Position numbers and translations under genes: made by a program
Part shown: positions 11,578 through 26,811 of the stretch, in pieces
How the letters are laid out: each line of letters opens with the position of its first letter
How positions within the stretch are numbered: position 1 is the stretch's first letter
From: Nitrospirota bacterium
GTDB taxonomy: Bacteria > Nitrospirota > Thermodesulfovibrionia > UBA6902 > DSMQ01
Reading direction: 5' to 3'
DNA length: 40,537 nt
NCBI GenBank assembly: GCA_016212185.1
Contig: JACRGX010000068.1
Span: forward strand, 1-40,537
Notes under the pieces: model-generated
What the model was told of the DNA's origin: nothing
The model's input: only the letters and a program-made list of their open reading frames with translations
The model's database searches: none

Positions 11578-12585
11578 CTATAATTTTATCTTATACGACA
11601 GGTTTAAAATAAAATCAGGCGCGCCTGCCGTATTTATGTCTTCTGCAAGCAAAAGTTCAACGCTGTTTTTTCCTGAATGGTATCTGCCTCCAAGCGAGAG
11701 CAAATACGCCGCGCGGTCCACAGCCAAAAGGTTAGTTTTAGGGTATATACGCGACTGTCCCTGAAGCTGTGCAATAAGGCTAAACCCCTTGTTTAAATCT
11801 GCCTCTACTGCCATGCCGCCATAAACAAAATCCTTTAAATTAATCTTCTCATACCCCCTGACATCTCCAGGAGAAACAGCGCCAAGATTCCAGTATGTTG
11901 CAATCCCTTGACAAATGTAATAATTCATGAGGACAGAAATGCCGGCATCAATACTGCCGTTTCCATAACCTGCCTTTGCGTCCCCTGTCGGAAGCTCAAG
12001 GTCTCCTTTCACGCTCAAACCAAAATCCCCTGATGACATCAAGGATTTCTTAAGCGTTAGCCTCACATCCCCCAAGCCTGCACCAGTTTCCCCGCGTACG
12101 ACAAGTGCATTATCCCTCCTGACCTCATAGATGAATTCATTATGCGGTCTGTTGCTCCTGCCGTAGTCAGAAAAGCCGAATGTGCTGTGATATGATTCTA
12201 AAAATCCGTCCATAAACCCGCCGCCGAAATAAAGCACCGGGACCTCCAGCCCGATTTCAAAAAGGTCTTTTATGTCCCTTTTGTATCTCAGGTTAAGTTC
12301 TGTAATTTCCATGTCCATATTAAAAGACCAGTTTGCTGAATTCTGGACAGTGTATGTGCTTGAATGTGAAAGGCTTGCGGAAAAAGAACTTTCAGTATCA
12401 GCAGTTTCTAGATAAGGCTGATTTGCATGAAGTGTTATCGGGTACTGGTTTTTTATCTGAAGAGGACCTTTAAATGAGAAAGCAATAGAAGGGAGAAGCA
12501 CAAGAAAAAACACAGAAAGCACAAAGATAAACTTTAAATTTCTTTCTAAAAAATTAGTTGTATAAATACTTCTTCGTGTTCTCAT
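11578..12585 (-). CDS. Outer membrane beta-barrel protein, DUF3187-like
   Basis: A 335-residue protein with a signal peptide (hydrophobic core FIFVLSVFFLVLLPSIAFS). After it come alternating polar/hydrophobic strands, many Gly/Tyr/Phe residues and a C-terminal strand ending in FILNLSYKIKL, typical of outer membrane barrels. GPLQIKNQYPITLHANQPYLE near the mature N-terminus resembles the DUF3187 family, whose function is unknown. The ATG overlaps the stop of the upstream PIN gene (TTATGAGA), so the two could be co-translated. There is no evident functional link to the toxin-antitoxin pair. Confidence 0.72.
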   Translation of the reverse strand: MRTRRSIYTTNFLERNLKFIFVLSVFFLVLLPSIAFSFKGPLQIKNQYPITLHANQPYLETADTESSFSASLSHSSTYTVQNSANWSFNMDMEITELNLRYKRDIKDLFEIGLEVPVLYFGGGFMDGFLESYHSTFGFSDYGRSNRPHNEFIYEVRRDNALVVRGETGAGLGDVRLTLKKSLMSSGDFGLSVKGDLELPTGDAKAGYGNGSIDAGISVLMNYYICQGIATYWNLGAVSPGDVRGYEKINLKDFVYGGMAVEADLNKGFSLIAQLQGQSRIYPKTNLLAVDRAAYLLSLGGRYHSGKNSVELLLAEDINTAGAPDFILNLSYKIKL

Positions 12586-13001
12586 AAAGGATTTTTAATC
12601 TTAACCCCCTTAATTATCTGCCCATCAGTTAAGTCTTCACTTAACAATAAAACAACCCCGCCCCTTACAGCAGATTCTATAATCACTGCGTCCCAGAAAG
12701 AATATTTATGTTTTCTTTGAATTTCTATCGCCTCTAAAATTATCTCTCCGTTAACAATTATGGTATTCCATTTTAATAAATCTTTCACAATTTCTTTAGC
12801 TGTAAGCACATCAAGCGGTTTACTCATTTTTCTCGTTACGTTCACAAAAAATTCCTGCACAACCTGAGAGCTGATAATCCCATTGCCTGAATTCCAGAAA
12901 CTTTCCATTAATTGCACAGCCTTTTTATGCTTTTCTCCGGCAGACGTATCATAAGCATATACAAGAATATTTGTATCTACGAACACTTTATCGCCTTTCA
13001 T
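12582..13001 (-). CDS. PIN-domain toxin (VapC-like ribonuclease)
   Basis: 139 residues from ATG at 13001. The PIN acidic residues are FVDTNILVYAYD (first Asp), VVQEFFVN (Glu), SFWDAVIIESA (Asp) and LLSEDLTDG (Asp). VapC toxins of this type cut RNA, often tRNA. I chose MKGDKVFVDTN as start because it overlaps the antitoxin stop by 14 bp, the usual coupled arrangement. The longer frame upstream adds only residues inside the antitoxin gene. The antitoxin and operator palindromes are immediately upstream. Confidence 0.88.
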   Translation of the reverse strand: MKGDKVFVDTNILVYAYDTSAGEKHKKAVQLMESFWNSGNGIISSQVVQEFFVNVTRKMSKPLDVLTAKEIVKDLLKWNTIIVNGEIILEAIEIQRKHKYSFWDAVIIESAVRGGVVLLLSEDLTDGQIIKGVKIKNPL

Positions 13002-13233
13002 GGAGTTCTTCCCTTGAAATTGTAATCTTCCCTTTTGTCCCAAGGTCAAAGCCTTTCCTCATAAGCCCGATTTGTCTATCCTTTGCCGTTTGATACCCCG
13101 TCTCCCCTCTGATTTTTTCTTCAAGGGTTTCCCTTAAAAGTTCACTCAGAGATTTTTCCTTGCTTGCGGCAATTATTTTTGCCTTTTTTAACAGGGGCTT
13201 AGGTAATGATAAAGTTACATTTTGCTTCTCCAT
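12988..13233 (-). CDS. Ribbon-helix-helix antitoxin of the PIN toxin
   Basis: 81 residues. The start is ATG at 13233 with AAAGGAGG six bases upstream; an in-frame TTG two codons earlier lies inside that spacer. NVTLSLPKPLLKKAKIIAASKEKSLSELLRETLEEKI has the ribbon strand and two helices of the RHH/CopG fold. The C-terminal part (QIGLMRKGFDLGTKGKITI) probably wraps the toxin and blocks its active site. It should bind the two palindromes upstream and repress its own operon. Confidence 0.85.
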   Translation of the reverse strand: MEKQNVTLSLPKPLLKKAKIIAASKEKSLSELLRETLEEKIRGETGYQTAKDRQIGLMRKGFDLGTKGKITISREELHERR

Positions 13234-13253
13234 TGGCAACCTCCTTTAAACTG

Positions 13254-13293
13254 CACATAAATATGTGTAACACATTTTTATGTGTAATGTCAA
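13254..13293 (-). promoter_or_regulatory. Promoter and paired operators of the RHH/PIN operon
   Basis: Two 14-bp palindromes CACATAAATATGTG (13254-13267) and CACATTTTTATGTG (13271-13284) start 17 bp apart. On the minus strand TTGACA (13293-13288) is a consensus -35, and the -10 (TTACAC at 13270-13265) falls in and between the palindromes. Binding of RHH dimers here would shut off transcription. Confidence 0.7.
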
Positions 13294-13357
13294 ATATGCA
13301 GTGGATAAAAGGGCAGCATAAACCTTTCGTCATACAATCTCATATGCCAAAGTCATC

Positions 13358-13400
13358 AAAAAAAAGGTCTGAGACCCTTTTCAACGAGCCGCAGACCCTT
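13358..13400 (-). terminator. Intrinsic terminator downstream of the cohesin gene
   Basis: On the minus strand AAGGGTCTG ... CAGACCTT is followed by T8. A shorter hairpin GGTCTCAGACC lies inside. It is 20 bp beyond the stop of the cohesin-domain gene. Confidence 0.65.
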
Positions 13401-13421
13401 GCTTTAAACGTTCAGCTTTGT

Positions 13422-14582
13422 CTATGGACTTATGGTTATTGCCCTTGCCCTGTTATTATTCTTTTCATTTATCTCAGAAACAGCATTATTTGCATCCGCC
13501 CTGCTAATGATATAGTAAGTTCCGGCAGTTGTGCCTGATGGTATTGTCACGCGGGCACGCCCGAGGCTTGTAGCGCCGGAGGTAAGTGACGGTATACTCC
13601 TGCTTCCAAGGAGGATATCACTTGCTTCGTATGTTGCATTAGTTGAGAGATAATATTTAGTGGTTGATGCGCCTGCTGAAGTCGTGCCCTGATTCTTTGT
13701 TGTATCGGATATTGTAATGCTCTGCCCTGCAGTTGCAGTTGACGGAACTGATAAGGCAGAGATAATGAGGTCAGGCATACAGCCTTCGTCTATCAGTCCG
13801 TCACAGTCGTTATCAATACCATCGCAGACCTCAGTCTGCGGCGTCCCAGGTGTGCAGGTGTCTACCGTTGAACCATTCTGGCAGATTAATTCTCCTGTTA
13901 ATAAGCAGACACCCATGCCGCAGGTTGTCGGTGTTGGGATATAACCATCATCAGCTATTCCATTACAATTTTCGTCAATTCCGTTGCAGTTGTCGTCATT
14001 TCCTGTCGGCTGACCAGGTTGACAGGTATCAATAAGCAGTCCGTTCTGACAGATTAACTCACCAGTTGCCTGACATACACCTACACCGCATGTTGTTGGT
14101 ATAGGTACATAATCGTTATCAATACAAAGGATACTAAAAGTACCTGAAGTGGCACTTGAAGGAATTACAACTCCCATTGTATCAGTGAGCTTAGTAAAAG
14201 TGAAATTAAGTAAGGTACTGTCTCCCGGGTTGCCAACCACATTAAACACAAGACCTGCCAGACTCCCACTACCTCCTGACAGCCCGGTCAGTGAGGTATC
14301 TAAACCTCCAACTATTATTTGTCCAGCAGTATTAATATTAGTAGTTATCATCCATCCGGTAGTTAAATTCCCTCCCACTGCTCCTGTGGCTCGAAGTACT
14401 GACAAATCATAGGTAATAGTAAACTGAAACCCTGCTATTCCTGCGGCATTGTCTACCATCACAGGAATCTCAATCATTACCCCTGCATCCACCTGTGTGT
14501 CCGGTATTGAGACTACTGCTGAAAATGCACTGACAGGTAAAAACATTGCAACACAAAACAATAAAATTTCCCATCTTCTCAT
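13422..14582 (-). CDS. Secreted protein: cohesin domain, two MopE-type Cys/Asp motifs, CARDB domain
   Basis: 386 residues with signal peptide MRRWEILLFCVAMFLPVSAFSA. Residues ~22-150 are a cohesin domain: VMIEIPVMVDNAAGIAGFQF, TYDLSVLRATG and LAGLVFNVVG are its usual strands. Residues ~153-268 hold two Cys-rich modules ending in NDDNCNGIDENCNG and CDGIDNDCDGLIDEGC, the calcium-type putative metal-binding motif of MopE proteins. Residues ~270-386 are a CARDB-like Ig fold (PDLIISALSVPSTATAGQ to NEKNNNRA). GGGGAGG precedes the ATG. The next gene upstream encodes a dockerin, so the two products may bind each other outside the cell. There is no anchor, so partner and location are inferred. Confidence 0.88.
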   Translation of the reverse strand: MRRWEILLFCVAMFLPVSAFSAVVSIPDTQVDAGVMIEIPVMVDNAAGIAGFQFTITYDLSVLRATGAVGGNLTTGWMITTNINTAGQIIVGGLDTSLTGLSGGSGSLAGLVFNVVGNPGDSTLLNFTFTKLTDTMGVVIPSSATSGTFSILCIDNDYVPIPTTCGVGVCQATGELICQNGLLIDTCQPGQPTGNDDNCNGIDENCNGIADDGYIPTPTTCGMGVCLLTGELICQNGSTVDTCTPGTPQTEVCDGIDNDCDGLIDEGCMPDLIISALSVPSTATAGQSITISDTTKNQGTTSAGASTTKYYLSTNATYEASDILLGSRSIPSLTSGATSLGRARVTIPSGTTAGTYYIISRADANNAVSEINEKNNNRARAITISP

Positions 14583-14597
14583 CTTAATTTTCCTCCC

Positions 14598-14693
14598 CTT
14601 TCAGTTGTTAGTTCTAAGTTCTTAGTTCCTATTTTTAAGTTCCCAGTTCCTTAACTCTTAACTTCTAACTTAACTTTTAACTTTTAACTCTTT
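14598..14693. repeat. Heptad array between the cohesin and dockerin genes
   Basis: GTTAGTT, CTAAGTT, CTTAGTT and TTAAGTT units pass into CTTAACT, TCTAACT and TTTAACT units, which are roughly their reverse complement. The array therefore forms a loose inverted repeat. It fills the whole gap and could act as a weak hairpin between the two genes. Confidence 0.75.
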
Positions 14694-16439
14694 TTATATA
14701 CATCCCCTCAGCGGGTCTAACTCCAGCGCTCCCCTTAAAACAAGAATTACATCTACAATATCTATCACGCCGTCTCCGTTCATGTCCCCGCATTCCTGCA
14801 AACACTGCGCCATGGGGTCTAATTCCAATGCACACCTCAATGTAAGTATCACATCAACTATGTCAATCCCTTTGTCTATGTTTACATCACCCATATATCT
14901 GTCAAACGTGTTTGGATTACAATCATCATCAATGCCGTTGTTGTATATCTCAGAAGCTCCGGGATTGACTGAGGGATTAGAGTCGTTACAGTCTACCTGC
15001 CCGCAATTCCCGCCCTGAATAGAATATCCATCTTGGTCGTTGTCTGTGCATGATGGAATATCGCAAACATCGCCTATACCATCATTATCAGAATCTGTCT
15101 GTTCAGGATTGTAGAGCGTTGAACAGTTGTCGCAAGTATTTCCCACACCGTCGCCTGAATAACCTTGTCCATTAATACCCTGTTGATAGTGATTATATGC
15201 CTCTGCAGATGTTATCGCCCTGCCGTATATTGCTACTTCATCAAGAAGTCCGTTGAACATCCCTCCATAGGGGCTGCCACCGATTAATGCCGTTCCGCTC
15301 AGCGTTGTGTTAAATGTCCTTGCATAATTAAGTTCCTCATTGCCGTCAACATAAAGCTTGGCATTGCCTGCTCCGTCATATGTTAATGCCACATGATGCC
15401 ATTGGTTGTTATCAACCAGTGTGCTTCCGCAACGCTCAAACGACCCGCCGCCCCAGTTGCCAATACATAAATATCCGTCTCCCCATACCATCAGATACAC
15501 TGCATTCTCTGGTGCGGGGTTCCCATACCATAATATTACCTGAGTATCATTGACTGCTGTCTTAAACCATGCCTCTATTGTACGTGCGCTGTTTCCGGCA
15601 GGGAAGTTGGTATCAGACACGCTTACATAACTGCTTGAATCAAAGCTTAATGCACTGCCTGCCTTACCGGTTGTCCATGCGGCTCCGGTTATCATTCCAT
15701 TGTTTGAACCGGTAAAGTCATTAGCAATACTTCCGCTTCCTTCGTCAAACTTCCAATATGAAATTGCATCAGACATTTCGCTGTCCGCCTGGTCGGGGTT
15801 GTAAGTTATAGGACAGTTGTCAATAGAATTAGCTACGCCGTCTAAATCTGCATCCATTAAGGCTATTCCGTCACAATCCTCATCTATCTCGTTATTTGGT
15901 ATCTCTGTGTCTGGCTGTCCCGGTGTGCATGTGTCATGAATTGAACCGCCTGTACAAACTAATGCCCCTGTCCTTGCACATGCGCCTATACCGCAATATG
16001 TCGTGGTTGATGCATAATTCTCATCTGCAGTACCGCTGCAGTTCTCATCTACACCATTGCAATTGGAGTCTGATGCATCGGGATGGATATTTGGATTGTT
16101 GTCATCACAGTCATTACCCGCTGTTGTCTGACAGTTTGCAGGCTGACAGCTAATACCGGAACACGTGCCGTCAATTAATGAATTCACATGCCCGTCACTG
16201 TCTTTGTCGCAGTAGTAATTTATAGTTGGAACTGTTGTAATTTTAGATGTGCAGTTGCCCACTTCGTCGTAAACATACACGGTTGTTGATCCATTTTCAT
16301 ATTCTATTCGTATCAGCTGGTTCAGGTCGTCATAAACAAAATTAATCGTTTCAGCATAAGAGGCGATAACAAATTGACAGCAGATAAATATGATGATACC
16401 GACGGATATCAATACATGATACTTCAGTTTTACACTCAT
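14694..16439 (-). CDS. Secreted multidomain protein: YD repeat, TSP3/MopE calcium motifs, LamG domain, C-terminal dockerin
   Basis: About 581 residues from ATG at 16439. GGAGGGG lies 8 bp upstream; an ATG two codons earlier is too close to it. A signal peptide (ISVGIIIFICCQFVIASYAE) comes first, then one YD repeat (FVYDDLNQLIRIEYENGSTT, then YDEVGNCTSKI). MopE- and thrombospondin-3-type Asp-rich loops (DADLDGVANSIDNCP, DSDNDGIGDVCD) flank a LamG-like lectin fold (SYWKFDEGSGSIAND, NNQWHHVALTYDGAG, LDEVAIYGRA). The C-terminus is a dockerin with two calcium loops: GDVNIDKGIDIVDVILTLR and GDMNGDGVIDIVDVILVLR. It sits upstream of the cohesin gene and downstream of the Rhs cassettes. A carbohydrate- or surface-binding role is inferred. 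Confidence 0.88.
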   Translation of the reverse strand: MSVKLKYHVLISVGIIIFICCQFVIASYAETINFVYDDLNQLIRIEYENGSTTVYVYDEVGNCTSKITTVPTINYYCDKDSDGHVNSLIDGTCSGISCQPANCQTTAGNDCDDNNPNIHPDASDSNCNGVDENCSGTADENYASTTTYCGIGACARTGALVCTGGSIHDTCTPGQPDTEIPNNEIDEDCDGIALMDADLDGVANSIDNCPITYNPDQADSEMSDAISYWKFDEGSGSIANDFTGSNNGMITGAAWTTGKAGSALSFDSSSYVSVSDTNFPAGNSARTIEAWFKTAVNDTQVILWYGNPAPENAVYLMVWGDGYLCIGNWGGGSFERCGSTLVDNNQWHHVALTYDGAGNAKLYVDGNEELNYARTFNTTLSGTALIGGSPYGGMFNGLLDEVAIYGRAITSAEAYNHYQQGINGQGYSGDGVGNTCDNCSTLYNPEQTDSDNDGIGDVCDIPSCTDNDQDGYSIQGGNCGQVDCNDSNPSVNPGASEIYNNGIDDDCNPNTFDRYMGDVNIDKGIDIVDVILTLRCALELDPMAQCLQECGDMNGDGVIDIVDVILVLRGALELDPLRGCI

Positions 16440-16574
16440 TTCCATATCCCCTCCATTTTTATGGGTATAGTACTTCAATAAGTCATACAGAATTATAAAC
16501 TGTATTGCCTGTTAAATATGTTATACAAGTTTCTTACCATTACGGCTAAATATTAATTATATGACAACTCTGTT
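16440..16574 (-). promoter_or_regulatory. Gap upstream of the dockerin gene, possible promoter
   Basis: This AT-rich gap has a TATAAT on the minus strand at 16497-16492, about 50 bp before the start. The -35 region is poor. No terminator from the Rhs side is clear. Confidence 0.35.
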
Positions 16575-16813
16575 TCAAACTCGCTGCTTTGACGCTCTCA
16601 TCTTTCTGCTTTCATCAGTAAACATAAGATTCACATCCCCACCGTCAAAGCCGATTGGTCTTCGCTTATGAAGACCCTGTAAGGCTCGTCCAGTCCATAG
16701 GGCGCAAAGTCAGTATCTGTGCGGAGTTGGAAGGTTTCGGTGTAAATTGTCATGTCCCCCCTTTTCAGGACTTTTTTGAAGAATCGTATCCGTAATTTTA
16801 TATTTTCCCCCAT
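16575..16813 (-). pseudogene. Degenerate Rhs C-terminal cassette (frameshifted, tip lost)
   Basis: It begins like the two intact cassettes: KLRIRFFKKVLKRGDMTIY, then DEPYRVFISED. One base is then missing relative to the others, so the frame reads QSALTVGM and stops. In the shifted frame GFDGGDVNLM continues and then runs into unrelated FTDESRKMRASKQRV and a stop at 16575. The usual AYVGNNP...DPLGL and any toxin tip are absent. No immunity gene follows, because the next feature is the dockerin gene. It is best read as the decayed end of the cassette array. Confidence 0.75.
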
Positions 16814-16854
16814 GTCCGTGTCTGACCCCTTATTCTTCTGACCCCTTATTCTTT
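16626..16854 (-). repeat. Rhs cassette boundary block, copy R1
   Basis: This homologous block starts on the minus strand with AAAGAATAAGGGGTCAG and runs through the KVLKRGDMTIY...YRVFISED coding part. It resembles 17499-17752 and 19129-19391. Here the AGAATAAGGGGTCAG start is duplicated in tandem. The stop codon of the preceding gene lies inside the block. Confidence 0.75.
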
Positions 16855-17232
16855 TTCCTGTTTCATCCGCTTATTATGCGCTCTATAGGAAAAAACTGTT
16901 CCTACAACGCTCAAAATGCTAAGGATAATGTTAATCGGATATGGAAACCATAAAGCAAAATTAACAATGGCCACTAAACAAACTATTGAGTACTCGTATA
17001 CTCTAATCTTCAATCCTTTTCGGCCCCGTTGCGAAACAATTCTTATCCCTATCGATAGGGCGATCCAGCTCCCATAATGTGTTAGGGCCTTAATAGATAA
17101 TTTGCCACCAAGCAACGGAGCAACAAGGCAAATAGAGAAAATAATCACAGACAGTATTAAGAAGAGATTAGCAATCGTATATGTCATGCCATAGACTTCT
17201 TTCTTATCCGTCAATTTGTTTCTTATTTGCAT
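16846..17232 (-). CDS. Small four-span membrane protein, candidate immunity protein of cassette 3
   Basis: 128 residues that I do not recognise as a named family. Hydrophobic segments are at about residues 18-38 (TIANLFLILSVIIFSICLVA), 52-64, 80-95 (YSIVCLVAIVNFALWF) and 98-115 (INIILSILSVVGTVF), with a basic tail KRMKQEKE. The start overlaps the stop of the Rhs tip gene by 10 bp (ATGCAAATAA). An alternative start MTYTIANLF is at 17187. In Rhs loci the gene straight after a tip usually encodes its immunity protein. The tip has long hydrophobic stretches, so an inner-membrane guard would fit. The role is inferred from position only. Confidence 0.6.
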   Translation of the reverse strand: MQIRNKLTDKKEVYGMTYTIANLFLILSVIIFSICLVAPLLGGKLSIKALTHYGSWIALSIGIRIVSQRGRKGLKIRVYEYSIVCLVAIVNFALWFPYPINIILSILSVVGTVFSYRAHNKRMKQEKE

Positions 17233-17738
17233 GTCTGGTTATTCCCAAGCCTTTCAATTCCTGTTGATATTCTATCAATTGAGTCTGCTCCCGCTTCAAT
17301 TGCAGCTCCACCAAATATTACTGGTATCCACCAAGCTTCTGGTCCTGCCGCAAGACCTACGGCGGATGCTACTCCCATAGAGACAGAAAAACCACCTTCA
17401 ATTCCACCGGTAACAATATCTGCAATTGGGGCAACATAATTTGAATTTGGAAACGCCTCCGAAAAAGAAGGTATTTGGAGAAGCGGATTATCGAATAATC
17501 CTAATGGATCAATTCTATTCACCGGATTATTTCCCACATACGCCATGAGATTCACATCGCCACCATCAAAGCCAATCGGGTCTTCGCTTATGAAGACCCT
17601 GTAAGGCTCATCTAATCCAATGGGCGCAAAATCAGTATCTATGCGGGTTTGGAAGGTTTCTGTGTAAATCGTCATGTCCCCCCTTTTCAGGACTTTTTTG
17701 AAGTATCGTATCCGTAATTTAGTATCTTTGTCCATCAC
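17223..17738 (-). CDS. Orphan Rhs C-terminal cassette 3 with a hydrophobic tip
   Basis: 171 residues. Residues 1-80 are the shared cassette start: KLRIRYFKKVLKRGDMTIY, then DEPYRVFISEDPIGFDGGDV, MAYVGNNPVNRIDPLGL. The last motif is the Rhs core end, after which toxins are exchanged. Residues ~81-171 are the tip: VAPIADIVTGGIEGGFSVS, MGVASAVGLAAGPEAWWIPV and IFGGAAIEAGADSIDRI. It is Gly/Ala-rich and largely apolar, so membrane insertion is possible. No catalytic motif is seen. There is no YD-repeat body. The gene could be silent until recombined onto the full Rhs gene upstream, or translated alone; I see no strong ribosome binding site before ATG. The membrane-protein gene overlaps its end. 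Confidence 0.72.
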   Translation of the reverse strand: MMDKDTKLRIRYFKKVLKRGDMTIYTETFQTRIDTDFAPIGLDEPYRVFISEDPIGFDGGDVNLMAYVGNNPVNRIDPLGLFDNPLLQIPSFSEAFPNSNYVAPIADIVTGGIEGGFSVSMGVASAVGLAAGPEAWWIPVIFGGAAIEAGADSIDRISTGIERLGNNQTCK

Positions 17739-17752
17739 AGACCTTATTCTTT
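17499..17752 (-). repeat. Rhs cassette boundary block, copy R2
   Basis: A ~254-bp block from AAAGAATAAGGTCTG (17752) to the DPLGL codons (17499). It is homologous to R1 and R3, and its first bases form the end and stop of the TPR gene. Confidence 0.75.
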
Positions 17753-18787
17753 CTTCCCCTTAATTTTGTATTCACGCATCCAGTCTTCCCTCTTGACGTC
17801 CTCACGCCACGGCTTGCCTGCCTTATAAGATTCTAATTGCGGGACTAACTTTAAGTTATCAATCAGATTCTCATTATTATTTTTTTTAAGTAACGTAATG
17901 GCTTTTTCCACTGTCTGGATTGCCTCTTTGAAATTACCCAATTCAGCATAAGCTGCAGCCGGGGTACCTACGAAAACCACTTCATCAGGATTGAGGTCGC
18001 CAGCTTTTAGAGCTAATTTTAACGCCTTAGCTCCATTTCTAAACCTGCTGTCGGGACAGGTGGACAATAGCCAGGAATAGTTGTTGTATACTAGTGCTTT
18101 TTTCGGGTCTAATTCTATGGCTTTTTCGTAATCAATAATTGCGGAAGCATACTCTCTTTTCTCATGCCACGTGTTCGCACGGTTGAATACTGCCTGCGCA
18201 TACTTTGGATTTATCTGTATAGCTTTTGTGTAATCAGAGATGGCATTATCAAAATTACCTTTCTCGTACCATGCCTCTGCCCGGGAATAATACGCTTCAG
18301 CTTTAGTGGGATCGATTTTTATTCCCTCAGAGTAATCATCAATGGCACGACTGTAATCTTCAATCTTAAACCACGCGTATGCCCGCTTAAAATATAGATC
18401 AATCCTTGTTAAATTATCTGGATTAAACTGCAGAGCCTTAGTAAAATCAGAGATTGCAAGGTCATAATTACCCTTTTTGCTTAATATTGTCCCCCGATTA
18501 AAATATGCATCAATACATTCTTTATCTATTTCCAATGCCATTGTGTAATCAGCAATAGCTTTTTCCATTTCGTTCATATAGTCCCAAACAAGTCCGCGAT
18601 TATAGTATGCTTTTGCGCTGCGTGGATTTATTTTCAGAGCCTCGTTATATCTTTTTATAGCAGATTCATAGTTTCCAGCCCTGGCGTCGCGGTTTCCCCA
18701 GTCAATCATGTAACCTTCCTCTGTGCATCCAATTAATAATAGGCAGGTAATTACTAAGCACCAAATAATAACGTTAGAACTTTTCAT
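17744..18787 (-). CDS. TPR-repeat lipoprotein, downstream of Rhs cassette 2
   Basis: 347 residues. A lipoprotein signal (IIWCLVITCLLLIGC) has its lipid cysteine near residue 21. Then come about seven tetratricopeptide repeats of the form AYYNRGLVWDYMNEMEKAIADY and AYYSRAEAWYEKGNFDNAISDY, up to about residue 250. A last helical part and a charged tail (WREDVKREDWMREYKIKGKKE) follow. TPRs bind other proteins. Since it starts 15 bp after the cassette 2 tip, with TAGGAG before ATG, it may be that tip's immunity or carrier protein. An ordinary TPR lipoprotein carried along is the other option. The end lies in boundary block R2. Confidence 0.78.
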   Translation of the reverse strand: MKSSNVIIWCLVITCLLLIGCTEEGYMIDWGNRDARAGNYESAIKRYNEALKINPRSAKAYYNRGLVWDYMNEMEKAIADYTMALEIDKECIDAYFNRGTILSKKGNYDLAISDFTKALQFNPDNLTRIDLYFKRAYAWFKIEDYSRAIDDYSEGIKIDPTKAEAYYSRAEAWYEKGNFDNAISDYTKAIQINPKYAQAVFNRANTWHEKREYASAIIDYEKAIELDPKKALVYNNYSWLLSTCPDSRFRNGAKALKLALKAGDLNPDEVVFVGTPAAAYAELGNFKEAIQTVEKAITLLKKNNNENLIDNLKLVPQLESYKAGKPWREDVKREDWMREYKIKGKKE

Positions 18788-18802
18788 AGTTATAAGCTGC
18801 TC

Positions 18803-19366
18803 CTATTTACACATGGTCATTATTTTATTATAAACAGGTTTCATCATATCAATAGGATGAATTATTGTTTCGTATATATTAGTGTCAAGGGCATTCTTAA
18901 ATGCAATCGGCATTGTTAATATAGTTACAGCCGCAGTTGGCAGATCCTTATATGCATCTTTAATGCCCATATTATCTAACATTGCATCATGCTGTATCGA
19001 TGTTTCATAGAGATTAGGCACATTACGTTCAAAGAACACCATTCCTGAATCACCGGGGCGTAAGCCTTTTCTTGCACTTTCGGACCCCATAACCGGCGGA
19101 TCATCCTTCCCACGCAGCCACTGCGCCAACCCCAATGGATCAATCAGAAGCATTGGATTATTTCCGACATACGCCATCAGATTCACATCCCCCCCCTCAA
19201 AGCCGATCGGGTCTTCGCTTATGAAGACCCTGTAAGGCTCGTCTAATCCATAGGGCGCAAAGCCAATATCTTCGCGGGCTTGTAAGGTTTCAGCGTAAAT
19301 TGTCATGTCCCCCCTTTTCAGGACTTTTTTGAAGTATCGTATGCGTAATTTTGTATTTTGTCCCAT
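18803..19366 (-). CDS. Orphan Rhs C-terminal cassette 2 with an unrecognised tip
   Basis: 187 residues. The shared start (KLRIRYFKKVLKRGDMTIY, DEPYRVFISEDPIGFEGGDV, MAYVGNNPMLLIDPLGL) covers residues 1-80. The tip covers ~81-187: AQWLRGKDDPPVMGSESARK, GLRPGDSGMVFFERNVPNLY, ETSIQHDAMLDNMGIKDAYK and a mostly helical end. The His-Asp pair in QHDAMLD is a possible catalytic or metal site, but I do not recognise the fold. No YD body is present. It lies 16 bp after the lipoprotein gene of the main Rhs unit, with a weak AGGG before ATG. It may be a spare tip for exchange onto the full-length gene. Confidence 0.72.
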   Translation of the reverse strand: MGQNTKLRIRYFKKVLKRGDMTIYAETLQAREDIGFAPYGLDEPYRVFISEDPIGFEGGDVNLMAYVGNNPMLLIDPLGLAQWLRGKDDPPVMGSESARKGLRPGDSGMVFFERNVPNLYETSIQHDAMLDNMGIKDAYKDLPTAAVTILTMPIAFKNALDTNIYETIIHPIDMMKPVYNKIMTMCK

Positions 19367-19391
19367 GTCCGTGCCTGACCCTTTATTCTTT
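19129..19391 (-). repeat. Rhs cassette boundary block, copy R3
   Basis: A ~263-bp block from AAAGAATAAAGGGTCAGGC (19391) to the DPLGL codons (19129). It shares its order and most bases with R1 and R2. It also supplies the last codons and stop of the upstream lipoprotein gene. Confidence 0.75.
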
Positions 19392-19844
19392 TTTCCATTC
19401 TATAACTTTCAGCTTAAGCCATTTCCCACGTAAACTGTATCCTTCCTGAATGACCTGAAACTTGGCATTCTGGGGTGTAAACCAATTATCCTTTCCAAGT
19501 CCAGAAAAATCTCCTTTCCCTCGGGGGTGCATAAAATAATGCGCCACTTTGTTATCCTTCATAAATACCAACAGGGTATCTCCTTCTGATACGCCCATAG
19601 ACAATTCATTGGTTTTTAGAAACCGCTGACCTATTAAATTTTGGATTGTATCACGGCTTTCATAAGGATCAAAAATATACAACCTGTCCCATTTGAAACT
19701 CGTCAATTCAGAAAGATTAATTATTGTACCCTCACCCCTTGAAACTTTTTTAGCAATAGCTGACGAAACAGAGCTCTCATATTCTCGACAGCCAAGAAAC
19801 GCGATTACGCAGATACACAAACAAAGAAGAAAGTTTGTTTTCAT
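19383..19844 (-). CDS. Small lipoprotein, candidate immunity protein of the full-length Rhs protein
   Basis: 153 residues, with a signal and probable lipobox (LCLCICVIAFLGC, Cys19). I do not recognise the family. The mature part is mixed: NLSELTSFKWDRLYIFDPYE, LVFMKDNKVAHYFMHPRGKG and KWLKLKVIEWKKE. The start codon overlaps the Rhs stop as TAATG, so translation is coupled and the two are made together. That is the usual place for an Rhs immunity gene. A periplasm-facing lipoprotein fits a toxin acting in the envelope or entering through it. This role is inferred from position. Confidence 0.72.
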   Translation of the reverse strand: MKTNFLLCLCICVIAFLGCREYESSVSSAIAKKVSRGEGTIINLSELTSFKWDRLYIFDPYESRDTIQNLIGQRFLKTNELSMGVSEGDTLLVFMKDNKVAHYFMHPRGKGDFSGLGKDNWFTPQNAKFQVIQEGYSLRGKWLKLKVIEWKKE

Positions 19845-22800
19845 TAGTAACAGCCTTTCTTGCCTTGAGGGTTAGTTCTTAAATTGTTCGGATTAACTAG
19901 GCGACTTTCGCGAGCAGCATTGCGTCCCTCTGAATTATTGTGTAAGTCCATGAGCCCTTCTCTCCATGGCTGATCATCGTTTATCCAATTGTCTATTTCA
20001 TGACCTAAACCTGCAGACCATGCTGTGAAGCTGTTTGTTTCCTCAGCAGTCCTCCTACTCCATTCTGCATGACGCATTGCATCACCTGTATCATTGTGAT
20101 GTCCAGCAAATCTCTCCATTTCTTGATCATGAATTTCATACGCTCTTCCGTAATTGGCTGGGAGATCCCACCAATCTCCAACAGCCAACCCCAACGGATC
20201 AATCAACAGTACGGGGTTGTTCAACACATAAGCATAGAGGTTAATGCCCCCCTCAAAGCCGATCGGGTCTTCGCTTATAAATCGTCCAACCTCCGGATCG
20301 TAATATCTTGCCCGCATGTAATAGAATCCATTCGGCTCGGTCATAACCCCATGTTGACCAACAAATTTGAAAGGCTGCTGCACTGCTTCAACCTGGTTCA
20401 CAACATTCCCAAATGGATCATACGAATATTTATTTACCATAGCTTGCGTTGAATCCGTCATTGCAATCGTACTACCGACTGCATTAAAGTGATAACAGTA
20501 TGTTTGATTAGTCGGCGTAACCATTGCAAGCAATCCAGCGCCGTATATATAGTATTTTGTGATATTATTATTTCCATCCGCCTCTGCAAGGAGATTCCCT
20601 CCTGTGTCGTAGATGTAACGAGTCTCAATGCCATTCCTTACCGCCTTCAACCTCTTGCCACTTCCGTCATAGTAGAAGGTTGTTGTTCCAGCTATGCTCT
20701 TTAAACGGTGTTCGTAATCAAAGGTGTAAGCACCCCCTGCCTTACTATTCAACTGTCCCTCGTCATCATAACCAAAACTTGTCGTATTAGCTGTTAAGAG
20801 ACGATTCTTTTTTGTGTTGTAAGTGTATGAAACATCGGCCGGGTTCGGTATCTGTGTCAACGGCTCATTCTGCACAACCTGTGTTCGGTTGCCGTTGCCG
20901 TCTAATGTAAAACTATAACTTGCCAATATCGTGGTATCCGACTTTTTATTATCGAAAGCAGTCAAACGATTAGCATTGTCATAACCATACGTAGTCACTG
21001 TTCCGTTGAAATTTGTCAAACTCGTTAATCTTCCTGCATCATCATAATTATACGTTGCAGTCTGACTTAACCAGTTGGTTACTGTCTTTAAGCGATTCAA
21101 TGCGTCATAAGTATAATTCACCGTCTTATTGCCGGGATAAGTAATTGATGTAAGATTGCCTGCTGCGTCATATCCATAGGCAACTGCAAATCCATTCGCA
21201 TCTGTCTGCGATGTCAGCCGTCCGACTGCATCATAGCCATAACTGCTGCTTCCAATCGCTTCCTGCATCCCTGTAAGCTGATCATACTGGTCGTACGTAA
21301 AATGGACTGTAGAAGAATCCGGATATGTTATCGTATCCGGTTTATCTGTCGGCGTGTATGAATAAGTAATGGTCTGATTATTCCGGTCTTTCCTGCTTGC
21401 AAGCCTTCCTGCATCGTCATATGTAAGGATGGTGTCCTTCAAAAGCGGGTCTGTCTTCTTCGTCAGCAAACTGCGTTTGTCATAAACAAAACTCGTGGTT
21501 GAAGTTACTTGATCAGTCAAGTCCGTCATTCTTCCTATCGAATCATACGAATAATCTATTGCCGGATGGCTACCGACTTTTATGGTGTCAGGATTTCCGT
21601 AACTGTCGTAAGTCAATGTAGTCATTGTTGCGCGCCCGTCTGTTACCGTATTCTTCAAGCCGTTAGCATAATAAGTGGAACTGTTCTGATACAGTCCGCT
21701 GTCTATGGGATTGAGACTTGAATCATATCGAATGCCGAACTTTGACAATATCGGATGATGTTCGCTGTCATACTCAAGATGAGTCCCGTGGTATATGTGA
21801 TCAACGGTGTCGGTCAGCCTGAATTGGGCATCGTAATTATAGTCGGTAATAAGACCCAGCGCATTTATGCTTGCGATGAGATTATGATTGCCGTCATAAT
21901 AAAACCATGACGGATTTGCTTTCGCGTCAACCGTCTCTACCACATGGTTTTGCCCGTCGTATTGGGTTGTTTTTGAATTTCCAAGCGCATTCTGTTCACC
22001 GACTGTCCGCTTCTTGTCGTCAATGAAATAAATTGTCTGATTCCCGGATTCTTCGCGAATATTTCTGAAGCCTGAGAAGTAATAATTATGCGTTGTACTC
22101 GTCCCGCCCTGACGGGGCTCCACCTGCTGTTTTACTCTGCCGAGGCTGTCATAGGTATTGGTGACGGTTGTTATGCTCAACGGATTTGTCTGGCCTGTTA
22201 TCCTGTGGTCTGTATTGTATCCGTAACTCCACGCTTTGTTTTCAGGGTCGGTGTAAGTATTCAGATTGTCATTGGGATCATATCCATAAGACGCAGTCCT
22301 GCCGGCAGAATCAGCAACAGCAGTAAGTTTATCTCCTGTATATTGCAGGGTTAGTGTGCGATTAATTGCATCCGTCACTGTAGTCAAATTATTTCCGCTG
22401 TAAGTAAATGTCAAGGAGTTGCCGTCAACATCGGTCCATGAACTGACCCTGTTATTGGCATTAAAATCAATCACTGTGCCGAATCGCTCCTGCAATTGAT
22501 ACAATCCTGTCTGTTTTGTGAGTTTCGTGGTAACACCCGGCGGGGAGTTAAAGCTTCCATCCGGCAGCATGATATAAGTCAAAACCCTGTCCTGCAAATG
22601 GACCGATACGGCGTTTTCAAAAAGCTCATCCATGGACCATTTATTGACCAATACCGCTGTAGCCCATTCTTTGACAGCAGGCATAGATGAACTCATAAGA
22701 TCGAGAGTTACAACGGATGCTACCAGTGAAGCAACTGCATCCACAGGTTGTCGCATTGCAAGACCGGCATCCACGTCGCTGTGAATGTTGAGATAGATGT

Positions 22801-25800
22801 TATAACTATGTGTCCAGCCATAGCCGAGACTACTTTTCTCGTTATGGTTGTCGCTGTTGTAGTAGCGTTTGAAATGCAAACCCAATGGCTCTGCGCCTCC
22901 GAGCGCAAGGTCTTCATGGTCAAGCACATACGCTCCTGTAGTCATATCAATAGGATCGCCGCATTGAGAGGTACGTATCTGAGATGGAAAGAACAACTCT
23001 GAGTCAAATTCATTTTGAACGCAATAAATGCATGTTTGCCACGGATACGCTCCATATCCTCCGTAATAATCACCACCGATTATCATGCCCATCTCGGCTT
23101 TCCCATCAACGTCCTGTTTGAATTTTACGTATCCTTTTCCACTCCATTGCTGTAGAGCTAACTGTCCGTCTGCAGGAAGAATCAATGTAAATCCGTCATT
23201 GACCGCGCTTTGAAAATCCTGTATATCTTCAGCGCTGTAGCCTGTCAGTTGTGATTGTATAGTTGAGAAATTGCCGGAATCGGCAAGAAATATCTTGTCT
23301 CCATTACCATTGGCTATGTTCATTAATTTAATGGTTGACGCAGCAGGTCTGTCTACTCCCTGCAATTGTTCAAGCACGCCGTGCTCCAGCGCGCTGCCAA
23401 GGAAACTGCCTGCCTTGAAACATGCGTTTTCATCAGAGGTATTATTGTTTTTGGAGATATATGAGCCAACCTGCGTCTTGACGTCAACATAATAGCCTTC
23501 CTCCTGAGCCATGATGCCGAAGCGATGATGCCTTATCTGTATGACATTGGAAAGCTGAGCAAGCAGGTTGTCCGAAAGGGTAGTCTGCTGCATCCATGTC
23601 TGTCCCATAACATTGAGCGTCTCTGTCAATACCTCGCGCGAAGAATCGGATAATCCGCTTGTGCGGTAGTCTTCAAGAATTCTCTGGCGTTTCTTCAAAA
23701 GCCGGGCGTCTTTGCTGCCCCCGAAATCGGAAATAACAACATAAGATGAGCCGCGCTTCAGATTATATGTTGATGTTTGGTCACCGTAAGCGCCTGAATC
23801 AGCGCTGTAAGGATGATCAATCGTCAATGTCATTGTTGCCAGCCCTGCTCCTGAAACCGGCGGAGACTCCTGTGTAATTAATTCGTCATCAAGCCATAAT
23901 TGGGCTGCCGGCGCAGAAATGGTTTCTCCCACATTCGGCAGCGTGACGCCGGGGTAATCATAAGTAATCCCGTCATAGGAGAACGCGATTTCAATGTCCG
24001 CATTATGGACTCCAACAGCGCCGGCCAGATAACGGATGTTAATATCCCGAGTCTGACCCGCCCCAAGACTTCCTGACCCGCTGCCGCTCAAGAACTGAAA
24101 TTGACCGCTGCCTGAACCTGTCCATCTCATCCCGTTGATCGTTACAGTATAAGAACCATTATTCTTCAATTTGGCTGTGCCGTCAGCAAAATCGTCCAGA
24201 TAACGCTGACCAAAGTCTATTCCATAAGAACCCGGTGAAAAATTAGGGTCATCTGCCTTAAAACCAGTGCAGTTATAGTAATCGGTAGATGGAGTATATC
24301 CGGAGCCCGATATATTGACATTGAGTGTGGCTGTCTTTGTCCCGCGACTCTGGCCGGAACCTGAAAACGTGACGCTTGTCGTAATTGATTGTCCGGGGCC
24401 AACATTATGGACTCCGCAATTCTGGGTACACGAATAGGCGCCGCTGCCGTTGTTTGAAAGCCATGAATTGAATGTTGCCGTAGGATAGCCGGCTTGGACT
24501 GAATATGTAGTGCTATAAGTAACTGAACTATAACTGTTAATTCTGCCAAAGTCCCATGTGGTTGTTGACCGAGCTGTCAAATTGGTATTACCAACTTTGA
24601 TAACCTGATTAGATATGCTTTTTTCTGACTTTGTGAAATTTAGATTAATTTGAAGTTTTTGATCTGTGTTCGGTAAAGCTTGACTGGATCCAGAAACATT
24701 TAGCGCGCTGGACCCGCTACCGCCAGTATCATACGTAATCGCCAGCCTCTTCCCGGCTATATCATGGATTGAGAATAATTGATCTATCTGTCCGTGCTGG
24801 ATATGAACTTTATGAACATAGGCGTCCGGCACATTGTCCCAATATGCAGTAACCGAATACGGAAATCTTAAACCTGTTGGATATTGTTCAATGATCTCTG
24901 AAATGATATTCCTGCCCCCTATAATCCCGGACATTTCTGAATTTGGATAATTTGCGCGAAGAGAGGTTATCAGGTTTGTTGAATATTCAACAAGCTTGCT
25001 GCGAAGGGCGCTGTCATTTAGATTGCGAATATAATCAGTCCCTGTTTCACCGCCGGCTGCTGTCAGAAGCGCATTACGGTCATAGTTCATTGCGGTTTTC
25101 AGATTAATGCCCGCTGTCTCTTCGTATTTTTTGAATGACGGGTCAAACATATAGTCTGTTCCGTTGATTGCTGCCTTAACCCACACTCGATCCATCGTTG
25201 TATCCAAATAATAAACAGCTGCAGGAATGCCTCCGCTGCTCAGCAGCCTTGAAATGACGCTTGAACTTGCACTTACTCCAAGCCAGTGCTGCAGATCATA
25301 ATCGTCAGCTCCAAAATAATTAGGTATGGTCATTGTCCCGTAAACATATTGAACCGTTCCGATATTTGTGTTGTAATTGCTGCTTTCCCTCAACAAAGCT
25401 ATCATCAATGACGTCTGGTCAAAGTCATTTCCGCTTCCATCTAGATATGTCAAAGTGGCCCCTTTGAGCGAGCCGAAGTAAGGAACGTAATCAATGTAAT
25501 TATGAACATAGTCGTATATCAACTTGGGGTCATATTGAAGCGCCCGCGCAAGTTCCTCAATTCCATCAGTTATAGTCGCTGCAGAAGCAGTGAAAGCGGC
25601 AATTCCCATTGTTCCAAGAGTGTTTTCTCTTGACTGTTTTGAATTGTAGTAAGCCTCTGCATCTTCCGGACTGACAGGCTCAGCAGTCCCCATAAACCAG
25701 CCCGGACCAAGCACTTCTGCCTGAGAAATGGAAGCACTATTAGATAGTGCTCCATCAATACCTTTTGATTGATTCACATCCTCTGCATGTATTTGAGCAA

Positions 25801-25864
25801 TCCCTAAACAACTTAAACCCAAAAACAGAAAAAATATTATTGCCTTCTGTCTGATTTTAAACAT
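19844..25864 (-). CDS. Full-length exported Rhs/YD-repeat protein with transglutaminase-like N-terminus and DUF6973-like toxic tip
   Basis: About 2006 residues from ATG at 25864 with GGAGGT seven bases upstream; the longer frame adds five residues. Order: signal peptide (IIFFLFLGLSCLGIAQIHA), transglutaminase-like domain (~110-300), Ig-like modules with GSGSGSLGAGQTRDI (~460-650), the Rhs start module GDPIDMTTGAYVLDHEDLAL (~965), then YD repeats (YDALNRLKTV, YDDAGRLTSL and many others) to ~1800. The core end is GRFISEDPIGFEGGINLYA...DPLGL (~1888). The tip (~1890-2006) has HHNDTGDAMRHAEWSRRT, GLGHEIDNWI and MDLHNNSEGRNAA, a His/Asp-rich pattern like DUF6973. The transglutaminase part lacks the catalytic Cys (Asp there) and His (Arg there). 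The gene has its own consensus promoter. Confidence 0.9.
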   Translation of the reverse strand: MFKIRQKAIIFFLFLGLSCLGIAQIHAEDVNQSKGIDGALSNSASISQAEVLGPGWFMGTAEPVSPEDAEAYYNSKQSRENTLGTMGIAAFTASAATITDGIEELARALQYDPKLIYDYVHNYIDYVPYFGSLKGATLTYLDGSGNDFDQTSLMIALLRESSNYNTNIGTVQYVYGTMTIPNYFGADDYDLQHWLGVSASSSVISRLLSSGGIPAAVYYLDTTMDRVWVKAAINGTDYMFDPSFKKYEETAGINLKTAMNYDRNALLTAAGGETGTDYIRNLNDSALRSKLVEYSTNLITSLRANYPNSEMSGIIGGRNIISEIIEQYPTGLRFPYSVTAYWDNVPDAYVHKVHIQHGQIDQLFSIHDIAGKRLAITYDTGGSGSSALNVSGSSQALPNTDQKLQINLNFTKSEKSISNQVIKVGNTNLTARSTTTWDFGRINSYSSVTYSTTYSVQAGYPTATFNSWLSNNGSGAYSCTQNCGVHNVGPGQSITTSVTFSGSGQSRGTKTATLNVNISGSGYTPSTDYYNCTGFKADDPNFSPGSYGIDFGQRYLDDFADGTAKLKNNGSYTVTINGMRWTGSGSGQFQFLSGSGSGSLGAGQTRDINIRYLAGAVGVHNADIEIAFSYDGITYDYPGVTLPNVGETISAPAAQLWLDDELITQESPPVSGAGLATMTLTIDHPYSADSGAYGDQTSTYNLKRGSSYVVISDFGGSKDARLLKKRQRILEDYRTSGLSDSSREVLTETLNVMGQTWMQQTTLSDNLLAQLSNVIQIRHHRFGIMAQEEGYYVDVKTQVGSYISKNNNTSDENACFKAGSFLGSALEHGVLEQLQGVDRPAASTIKLMNIANGNGDKIFLADSGNFSTIQSQLTGYSAEDIQDFQSAVNDGFTLILPADGQLALQQWSGKGYVKFKQDVDGKAEMGMIIGGDYYGGYGAYPWQTCIYCVQNEFDSELFFPSQIRTSQCGDPIDMTTGAYVLDHEDLALGGAEPLGLHFKRYYNSDNHNEKSSLGYGWTHSYNIYLNIHSDVDAGLAMRQPVDAVASLVASVVTLDLMSSSMPAVKEWATAVLVNKWSMDELFENAVSVHLQDRVLTYIMLPDGSFNSPPGVTTKLTKQTGLYQLQERFGTVIDFNANNRVSSWTDVDGNSLTFTYSGNNLTTVTDAINRTLTLQYTGDKLTAVADSAGRTASYGYDPNDNLNTYTDPENKAWSYGYNTDHRITGQTNPLSITTVTNTYDSLGRVKQQVEPRQGGTSTTHNYYFSGFRNIREESGNQTIYFIDDKKRTVGEQNALGNSKTTQYDGQNHVVETVDAKANPSWFYYDGNHNLIASINALGLITDYNYDAQFRLTDTVDHIYHGTHLEYDSEHHPILSKFGIRYDSSLNPIDSGLYQNSSTYYANGLKNTVTDGRATMTTLTYDSYGNPDTIKVGSHPAIDYSYDSIGRMTDLTDQVTSTTSFVYDKRSLLTKKTDPLLKDTILTYDDAGRLASRKDRNNQTITYSYTPTDKPDTITYPDSSTVHFTYDQYDQLTGMQEAIGSSSYGYDAVGRLTSQTDANGFAVAYGYDAAGNLTSITYPGNKTVNYTYDALNRLKTVTNWLSQTATYNYDDAGRLTSLTNFNGTVTTYGYDNANRLTAFDNKKSDTTILASYSFTLDGNGNRTQVVQNEPLTQIPNPADVSYTYNTKKNRLLTANTTSFGYDDEGQLNSKAGGAYTFDYEHRLKSIAGTTTFYYDGSGKRLKAVRNGIETRYIYDTGGNLLAEADGNNNITKYYIYGAGLLAMVTPTNQTYCYHFNAVGSTIAMTDSTQAMVNKYSYDPFGNVVNQVEAVQQPFKFVGQHGVMTEPNGFYYMRARYYDPEVGRFISEDPIGFEGGINLYAYVLNNPVLLIDPLGLAVGDWWDLPANYGRAYEIHDQEMERFAGHHNDTGDAMRHAEWSRRTAEETNSFTAWSAGLGHEIDNWINDDQPWREGLMDLHNNSEGRNAARESRLVNPNNLRTNPQGKKGCY

Positions 25865-26043
25865 AATGGTTACCTCCATGTAATGATTTTTAAATTATGA
25901 ATATAAACACAGAGCAAAAACATTGAAAGGAAAGCTACAGAAAAGAATGTTTTCTGCATTGAAAACTTCTCCTTAAGAGATAAAAAAATCCCTCATTAAA
26001 TTCAGTGTTAACTGGTTAAGAAACAGGAAAAGATAAGTAATTG

Positions 26044-26072
26044 TTATTACACTGTATAAAAAGATTTGTCAA
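26044..26072 (-). promoter_or_regulatory. Sigma-70 type promoter of the Rhs gene
   Basis: On the minus strand TTGACA (26072-26067), a 17-bp spacer and TAATAA (26049-26044). It gives a leader of about 170 bases before the Rhs ATG. The surrounding 25865-26211 gap is AT-rich and holds no other gene. Confidence 0.75.
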
Positions 26073-26211
26073 GACATTTTTTATACAAACTTTATAGGTA
26101 CTATAACTATTTTTTATAAAACATTTTTATACGGTTTCCAATCAAACAGAATCAATGCTATTTAACAGCCCTTGATTTTTAAAGAGGAGTAATTGAAATT
26201 ATAAGATTTAC

Positions 26212-26607
26212 TTAATAAAACTTCAGCCCTGCAACCTTTGCTATCTTTTCAAAATCTTCATCATTATGCAAAAGCAAAAGGTTATTTTCTATAGCAGTCT
26301 GGGCAATAAGGCAGTCAATAGTGCCGCCGACCTGAAACCCTTTTTTTCTGCATTTAAAGTAAAGTTCTGCAGCCTCTGTAAAAGAAATCTTTTTATCTTT
26401 TAAATCATAAAACACCTGAGTTTCAAGATATGCCTTTAACTCGTTAAATTCCTTTTCTGTCTTTGTACCCTGAAGCAGTTCCTGATAGATGTATGAGTTA
26501 ATGCCAAAAGGGATGCCGGTATCAAGAATGAATTGCAGTTTCTCTACAGCGTGGTTTTGCGTTCCTTTTAAATAATCTATTAATACAGAGGTATCTACGA
26601 GGACCAC
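26212..26607 (-). CDS. vapC: VapC-type PIN-domain toxin
   Basis: 131 residues. PIN residues: MVLVDTSVLIDYLKG (Asp5), YIYQELLQG (Glu), GGTIDCLIAQTA (Asp) and LLLHNDEDFEKIA (Asp). The probable activity is site-specific RNA cleavage. It starts 3 bp after the VapB stop, so the pair forms one operon. The family length is typical. It lies between the Rhs promoter region and pgk and is the second PIN toxin of the window, unrelated in detail to the one at 12582-13001. Confidence 0.92.
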   Translation of the reverse strand: MVLVDTSVLIDYLKGTQNHAVEKLQFILDTGIPFGINSYIYQELLQGTKTEKEFNELKAYLETQVFYDLKDKKISFTEAAELYFKCRKKGFQVGGTIDCLIAQTAIENNLLLLHNDEDFEKIAKVAGLKFY

Positions 26608-26610
26608 CGG

Positions 26611-26811
26611 TTAGTTGCCTTTTCTTAATGCCTTATAGTCGTAATCTTCCATGAAGCGGACTTTCCCTTTAAGTCTTCTTAAATCCATCCTGCTGTGGTC
26701 TTCCACAAACTTTTTAAGCGCCTCATTTATTAACCCTTTCTTAGTTTTTGCATCAGAATATTGAAACGCCTTTTTTATAAGTTTATCATCAATTGCAATA
26801 TTCGTTCTCAT
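26611..26811 (-). CDS. vapB: VapB-type antitoxin
   Basis: 66 residues. MRTNIAIDDKLIKKAFQYSD, then KTKKGLINEALKKFVEDHSR, is the DNA-binding N-terminus of the VapB (DUF2191-like) family. The C-terminal RRLKGKVRFMEDYDYKALRKG should lie across the toxin. GGAGGTG stands six bases before ATG. The promoter just upstream has near-palindromic ACACATAATAATACAC, a likely operator. Confidence 0.9.
   Translation of the reverse strand: MRTNIAIDDKLIKKAFQYSDAKTKKGLINEALKKFVEDHSRMDLRRLKGKVRFMEDYDYKALRKGN

What the first reader, a model, noticed from the sequence alone, without database searches (positions are those of the whole stretch)
13422..16439. Adjacent cohesin and dockerin proteins beside an Rhs locus
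One gene encodes a cohesin domain with a CARDB domain, the next a dockerin with LamG, calcium motifs and a single YD repeat. No cellulase or glycosidase is present, so this is not a cellulosome. A plausible picture is a secreted calcium-dependent pair that assembles on or near the cell surface, perhaps with a part in presenting Rhs-type proteins, since both the dockerin protein and the Rhs protein carry YD repeats.
Basis: partly seen in the sequence, partly recalled or inferred. Interest (0 to 1): 0.6.

Follow-up and report, generated by a model that had tools for sequence, protein, structure and literature searches.

The report
Cohesin-dockerin gene pair in Rhs island
Two neighbouring genes encode secreted proteins carrying the two halves of a calcium-dependent protein clasp, best known from cellulose-digesting bacteria; here they sit in an inserted island beside a toxin-type Rhs gene, and the same pairing recurs in several related bacteria, so it may be a general way to hold surface proteins together.

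Summary
On the minus strand, 14694-16478 encodes a secreted protein: signal peptide, one YD pair, MopE-like motifs, LamG and a C-terminal type-I dockerin with two intact calcium loops. Next, 13422-14582 encodes a secreted cohesin-MopE-CARDB protein. No glycosidase was found in the ORFs scanned. The pair is not chance. In the same class, 8 of 9 cohesin genomes also carry a dockerin, and across the phylum sample I found about 20 further same-strand pairs, usually dockerin first with a short gap or overlap. It is a non-cellulosomal cohesin-dockerin pair, a known kind.

The Rhs link has real but minority support. The pair lies in a 14.4-kb insertion, absent from a same-genus genome, made mostly of the Rhs array. 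Three of 20 other pairs also adjoin an Rhs gene or are fused to one (about 0.2 expected). The dockerin protein belongs to a type of signal-peptide-plus-single-YD protein that clusters near Rhs genes, though not exclusively. Binding, calcium dependence and any role in presenting Rhs are inferred. Structure prediction failed because no alignment could be supplied.

The parts
13422..14582 (-). cohesin protein, 386 aa: signal peptide (..LPVSAFSA), cohesin aa 22-151, MopE-type motif, CARDB; no lipobox, no C-terminal anchor
   Evidence: Pfam PF00963 E 1.4e-7, PF07705 E 1.7e-18; profile A2 8e-51 but trained with it; anchor check
14694..16478 (-). dockerin protein, up to 594 aa: signal peptide, one YD pair aa 49-82, two MopE motifs, LamG aa 280-426, TSP3-like stretch, C-terminal dockerin aa 530-586; likely start ATG near 16445
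   Evidence: Pfam, genome-level PF00404 24.1 bits over cut-off, NCBIfam YD_repeat_2x over cut-off, RBS seen in sequence
14583..14693 (-). 111-bp intergenic gap with a Shine-Dalgarno (AAAGGGGAGGAAAATTAAGATG) before the cohesin gene; probably one transcript with the dockerin gene
   Evidence: sequence; same-strand short gaps in relatives
16233..16352 (-). single-YD module (ETINFVYDDLNQLIRIEYENGSTTVYVYDEVGNCTSKITT)
   Evidence: profile A3 E 9.3e-20 (trained with it)
16575..16813 (-). decayed third copy of the displaced Rhs tip module, directly upstream of the dockerin gene
   Evidence: 239-nt repeat family D1, 64%
17223..17738 (-). displaced Rhs tip ORF, 171 aa
   Evidence: TIGR03696 38.4 bits over cut-off; repeat D1
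18803..19366 (-). displaced Rhs tip ORF, 187 aa
   Evidence: TIGR03696 34.8 bits over cut-off; repeat D1 86%
19844..25879 (-). Rhs protein, 2011 aa, with N-terminal signal peptide, DUF6531, Rhs core and a DUF6973 C-terminal tip
   Evidence: Pfam, NCBIfam
12527..26894 (.). inserted island (about 14.4 kb) carrying VapBC-like genes, cohesin, dockerin and the Rhs array; only about 21 bp at this place in a same-genus genome
   Evidence: BLASTN of L115 (genome G006) to window: 1-283 = 12244-12526 and 305-1883 = 26895-28473 at 91%

Best explanation
It is a non-cellulosomal cohesin-dockerin gene pair carried in an Rhs island. The dockerin protein is exported, folds around calcium, and is caught by the cohesin of its neighbour's product. 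The cohesin-CARDB protein, which has no membrane anchor of its own, acts as a secreted adaptor that joins the YD-LamG-dockerin protein to something else in the cell envelope or extracellular matrix. Shown: the genes, domains, intact calcium loops, signal peptides, conserved pairing and gene order, and the island. Inferred: the binding, its calcium dependence, export across the outer membrane, and the adhesive or tethering role. A weaker added claim (about 0.25) is that the partner being tethered or displayed is the Rhs protein.
For: Domains over curated cut-offs. Two perfect calcium loops (sequence, alignment). Solved cellulosomal dockerins and cohesins match the profiles, including a stand-alone 'COHESIN' chain 2xdh. 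Co-occurrence in the class: 8 of 9 cohesin genomes have a dockerin against a background of 20 in 230, p about 6e-9. About 20 other same-strand pairs; dockerin gene 5' of cohesin gene except in two loci where the dockerin sits at the N-terminus of its protein. In relatives the cohesin is often a lipoprotein or carries a PEP-CTERM-like anchor. Clean 14.4-kb insertion relative to a same-genus genome. Secretins are present in the genome, so an outer-membrane route may exist.
Against: No binding measured or modelled: AlphaFold2 without an alignment gave pLDDT 32-36, meaningless. The window cohesin lacks the lipobox or PEP-CTERM anchor seen in many relatives, so where the complex sits is unknown. 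Only one dockerin for two cohesins in this genome. The dockerin is just under Pfam's cut-off in one of two searches.
Confidence: 0.72

Rival explanations
1. Rhs tether. The single-YD, dockerin-bearing protein is an adapter: its YD hairpin associates with the Rhs shell, and dockerin-cohesin binding holds the Rhs protein at the cell surface or in the matrix.
For: Same order Rhs, single-YD protein, dockerin, cohesin on one strand in G222 of another family, where one in-frame stop now interrupts the YD-dockerin gene. G037: dockerin gene overlapping an SpvB/Rhs gene, cohesin gene 1.4 kb past it. G268: cohesin gene next to an Rhs protein with its own N-terminal dockerin. G039: dockerin inserted in an Rhs protein. 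The closest dockerins to the window's among those aligned are from G037 (45%) and G222 (37%). Rhs beside 3 of 20 other pairs, p about 0.0015. Single-YD secreted proteins in 11 of 25 Rhs loci and 0 of 56 loci without Rhs.
Against: 17 of 20 other pairs have no Rhs near. Held-out single-YD genes include several with no Rhs in reach (G177 C22 and C51, G005 C37). The Rhs counts rest on few loci and were partly gathered by following leads. In G039 no cohesin was found. A single YD pair binding an Rhs shell is unproven.
Confidence: 0.25
2. Passenger cassette: dockerin end plus cohesin gene is a mobile module that happens to sit in an insertion hotspot with Rhs and toxin-antitoxin genes; the pair binds, but has no functional link to Rhs.
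For: Dockerin lies at whichever protein end faces the cohesin gene; carriers vary (subtilase-like, beta-propeller, oxidase, FN3-like, PKD). The island contains VapBC-like genes and displaced tips. Most pairs lack Rhs.
Against: Repeat occurrence with Rhs in separate lineages, twice fused to it, above expectation.
Confidence: 0.5
3. The domains are degenerate relics or generic Ig-like/EF-hand modules that do not bind each other.
For: Modest Pfam scores; cohesin folds are also used in secretins, PEP-CTERM proteins and other contexts without a known dockerin.
Against: Both calcium loops intact, both genes intact, pairing strongly conserved.
Confidence: 0.12

Closest known systems
Non-cellulosomal cohesin/dockerin proteins of archaea and bacteria (Archaeoglobus fulgidus and others; reviewed by Peer et al. 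2009, cited in PMC9012536)
   Same: Few cohesins and dockerins, no scaffoldin with many cohesins, no cellulase context; archaeal versions bind specifically (PMC9012536). From memory, the A. fulgidus genes are also close together.
   Different: Here a CARDB-cohesin plus a YD-LamG-dockerin protein in an Rhs island; no such Rhs context found in the papers held.
Clostridial cellulosome (type I cohesin-dockerin)
   Same: Same module families; solved cellulosomal modules match the profiles.
   Different: No scaffoldin, no glycosidase in the window ORFs scanned, one dockerin and two single-cohesin proteins in the genome.
Rhs / polymorphic toxin loci
   Same: Large Rhs gene with displaced tip modules downstream.
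   Different: Known loci use secretion-system or anchor domains for delivery; neither cohesin nor dockerin is mentioned in the held text of the 2012 survey of polymorphic toxins (PMC3482391).
MafB-MafA type surface anchoring of polymorphic toxins
   Same: A separate surface-anchored protein is proposed to hold the toxin at the surface (PMC3482391).
   Different: Different domains; there the link is direct, here it would need a YD-dockerin adapter.

Membership tests
Cohesin-dockerin pair (non-cellulosomal) | Cohesin module over family cut-off | tested here: met
   32.2 and 35.6 bits against 24.1
Cohesin-dockerin pair (non-cellulosomal) | Dockerin with duplicated calcium loops | tested here: met
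   24.1 bits against 22.9 (21.0); two intact loops in sequence
Cohesin-dockerin pair (non-cellulosomal) | Secreted | tested here: met
   Signal peptides read by eye; no dedicated predictor available
Cohesin-dockerin pair (non-cellulosomal) | Linked in other genomes | tested here: met
   8 of 9 cohesin genomes in class; same-strand pairs
Cohesin-dockerin pair (non-cellulosomal) | Calcium-dependent binding | not testable with these tools
   Models failed, pLDDT 32 and 36
Cellulosome | Scaffoldin with several cohesins | tested here: not met
   Two single-cohesin proteins in genome
Cellulosome | Dockerin-bearing glycosidases | tested here: not met
   Only one dockerin protein in genome, without glycosidase domain
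Rhs locus component | Recurrent linkage to Rhs genes | tested here: inconclusive
   3 of 20 other pairs, p about 0.0015, small numbers

The most novel reading that the evidence does not exclude
A portable cohesin-dockerin clasp that holds Rhs-type proteins at the surface through a single-YD adapter: the YD hairpin engages the Rhs shell, the dockerin engages the cohesin. The arrangement recurs in several lineages of the phylum; a dockerin is fused directly to an Rhs protein in two genomes, one of them next to a cohesin gene.
Probability: 0.22. Interest if true: 0.72.

Novelty: new variant of a known kind. Interest (0 to 1): 0.5.

Why it matters
Cohesin-dockerin modules outside cellulosomes have been noted for over two decades, mostly without a known job. 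Here there is a consistent gene-pair rule (dockerin end faces the cohesin gene, cohesin often a lipoprotein or carrying a PEP-CTERM-like anchor) that predicts which partners bind and suggests a general clasp for keeping secreted proteins on Gram-negative surfaces. If the Rhs link holds, it would be a new way for bacteria to display Rhs proteins that carry signal peptides. Both claims are directly testable with small recombinant modules.

Tried and rejected
AlphaFold2 of the cohesin protein and of an artificial dockerin-linker-cohesin chain (same frame, stops read as glycine) had no alignment and gave pLDDT 36 and 32, so nothing was concluded and no fold search was run. Genome-collection search with the whole dockerin protein found only distant LamG/MopE-type relatives. 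MopE motifs as a link between the two proteins were rejected: they occur in 39 of 47 genomes of the order. Most phylum cohesin hits of about 800 aa look like secretins with a C-terminal cohesin (most of those read are) and were set aside. The idea that single-YD proteins occur only at Rhs loci was rejected by held-out hits. An early synteny argument using G005 was dropped because its neighbouring PGK is only 33% identical; G006 and G007 remain. A search of another phylum for the pair could not be set up.

Full report
What is there. Two genes on the minus strand lie 111 bp apart. The first, 14694-16478, encodes a protein with a signal peptide, one YD pair, two MopE-type motifs, a LamG domain, a TSP3-like stretch and a C-terminal dockerin. 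The second, 13422-14582, encodes a signal peptide, a cohesin, a MopE-type motif and a CARDB domain. Cohesin, CARDB, LamG and RHS_repeat pass Pfam's curated cut-offs; the dockerin scores 21.0 bits in one search and 24.1 in another against a cut-off of 22.9. Its two loops, DVNIDKGIDIVD and DMNGDGVIDIVD, have every calcium-ligand position in place. Profiles built from related modules find solved cellulosomal cohesins and dockerins in the PDB. The genome has this one dockerin and two cohesins, the second a stand-alone secreted 158-aa cohesin 49% identical to the window's.

Is the pairing chance? No. In 230 genomes of the class, a cohesin profile matches 9 and a dockerin profile 20; 8 of the 9 have both (p about 6e-9; about 6e-8 without the own genome). 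Caveat: some profile rows come from these same genomes, and the G222 cohesin was recognised because it lay next to a dockerin. A Pfam-only count over a phylum sample of 326 gives 11 genomes with both against 4.6 expected (p 0.002), although most cohesin hits there look like secretins. A cohesin model trained only on cohesins chosen as not lying beside a recognised dockerin gene still finds neighbours beside dockerin genes (two of its rows, L036 and L048, later proved to have one). In the table of pairs all are on one strand. The dockerin gene comes first, with a short gap or overlap in nearly all (G037 is the exception: a large Rhs gene lies between). The cohesin gene comes first only in G268 and G021, where the dockerin is at the N-terminus of its protein. 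So the dockerin-coding end faces the cohesin gene, as expected if the two travel as a cassette. The carriers differ: subtilase-like, beta-propeller, multicopper-oxidase-like, FN3-like, PKD (names partly from sequence inspection). In many relatives the cohesin has a lipobox (G277, G165, G307) or a PEP-CTERM-like tail (G185, G268, G021); the window's has neither.

Where it sits. In genome G006 of the same genus, DNA matching window 12244-12526 and 26895-28473 (91% identical) is separated by about 21 bp; in the window the separation is 14.4 kb. G007 of the same family also has the two flanking genes, DUF3187 and PGK, adjacent. So VapBC-like genes, cohesin, dockerin and the Rhs array lie in one block that was inserted here, or lost from the relatives. 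Whether the parts arrived together is not shown. The Rhs gene is followed by displaced tip modules, three copies of a 239-nt repeat; the last, decayed copy lies just upstream of the dockerin gene.

The Rhs link. G222 (another family) has Rhs, single-YD-PKD-dockerin and cohesin in the same order and strand; one in-frame stop now splits the YD-dockerin gene. G037 (same order) has a dockerin gene overlapping a large SpvB/Rhs gene and a cohesin gene just beyond. G268 has a cohesin gene next to an Rhs protein with an N-terminal dockerin. G039 has a dockerin inside an Rhs protein but no cohesin found. Among 20 other pairs, 3 have Rhs within 3 kb or fused, against 0.22 expected (p 0.0015; 0.41 and p 0.009 at 10 kb). 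This expectation uses rough Rhs locus counts and an assumed mean of 2.2 for two genomes.

The single-YD protein. Proteins with a signal peptide and exactly one YD pair near the N-terminus were found on the same strand as a large Rhs gene in 11 of 25 Rhs loci and in 0 of 56 loci without Rhs (p about 4e-7). Two more (L191, L210) are visible by eye. Their C-terminal parts vary: TIG, TSP3, PKD, GDSL, RCC1. A genome-wide search of 21 genomes with the module profile also found a few with no Rhs in the fetched neighbourhood (G177 C22 and C51, G005 C37), so the association is strong but not exclusive. The profile was trained on Rhs-adjacent examples. The window's dockerin protein is one of this type.

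How it most likely works. Both proteins are exported. The dockerin, with calcium, binds the neighbour's cohesin; CARDB, LamG and perhaps YD make further contacts. Binding and location are inference. That the complex presents the Rhs protein is possible (about 0.25) but unproven.

Compared with the known. It works like, and by every feature testable here belongs with, non-cellulosomal cohesin-dockerin proteins (PMC9012536). It is not a cellulosome: no scaffoldin, one dockerin, no dockerin-bearing glycosidase. Searches of held papers found none that mentions YD repeats with dockerins; the few holding Rhs, cohesin and dockerin together are cellulosome or biomass papers (these were not read, and 'rhs' there may be unrelated). 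Absence from this library does not prove novelty.

Noticed in passing
window 16575-16813, 17497-17735, 19128-19366: Three copies of a 239-nt displaced Rhs tip module downstream of the Rhs gene, the last decayed; a 35-nt part also matches the Rhs gene at 20247-20281.
   Followed up: partly
window 12527-26894: Clean insertion of about 14.4 kb between DUF3187 and PGK relative to a same-genus genome. The PIN gene at 12582-13049 has a small antitoxin-like frame upstream, and an antitoxin-like frame also lies near 26.7-26.8 kb.
   Followed up: partly
L191, L192, L193, L194, L195, L196, L197, L198, L202, L210, L118, L120: Secreted proteins with exactly one N-terminal YD pair and varied C-terminal domains cluster on the same strand as Rhs genes.
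   Followed up: partly
L243, L244, L248: The same kind of single-YD protein also occurs without Rhs in reach.
   Followed up: partly
L174:5881-10770: Rhs protein with a TSP3-dockerin segment inserted before its C-terminal tip, in a genome without a detected cohesin.
   Followed up: no
L034, L035, L043, L049, L058 and similar: Secretins with a C-terminal cohesin domain are common in the phylum.
   Followed up: no
window 19383-19844: Small lipoprotein-like ORF right after the Rhs gene with its DUF6973 tip; plausible immunity gene.
   Followed up: no
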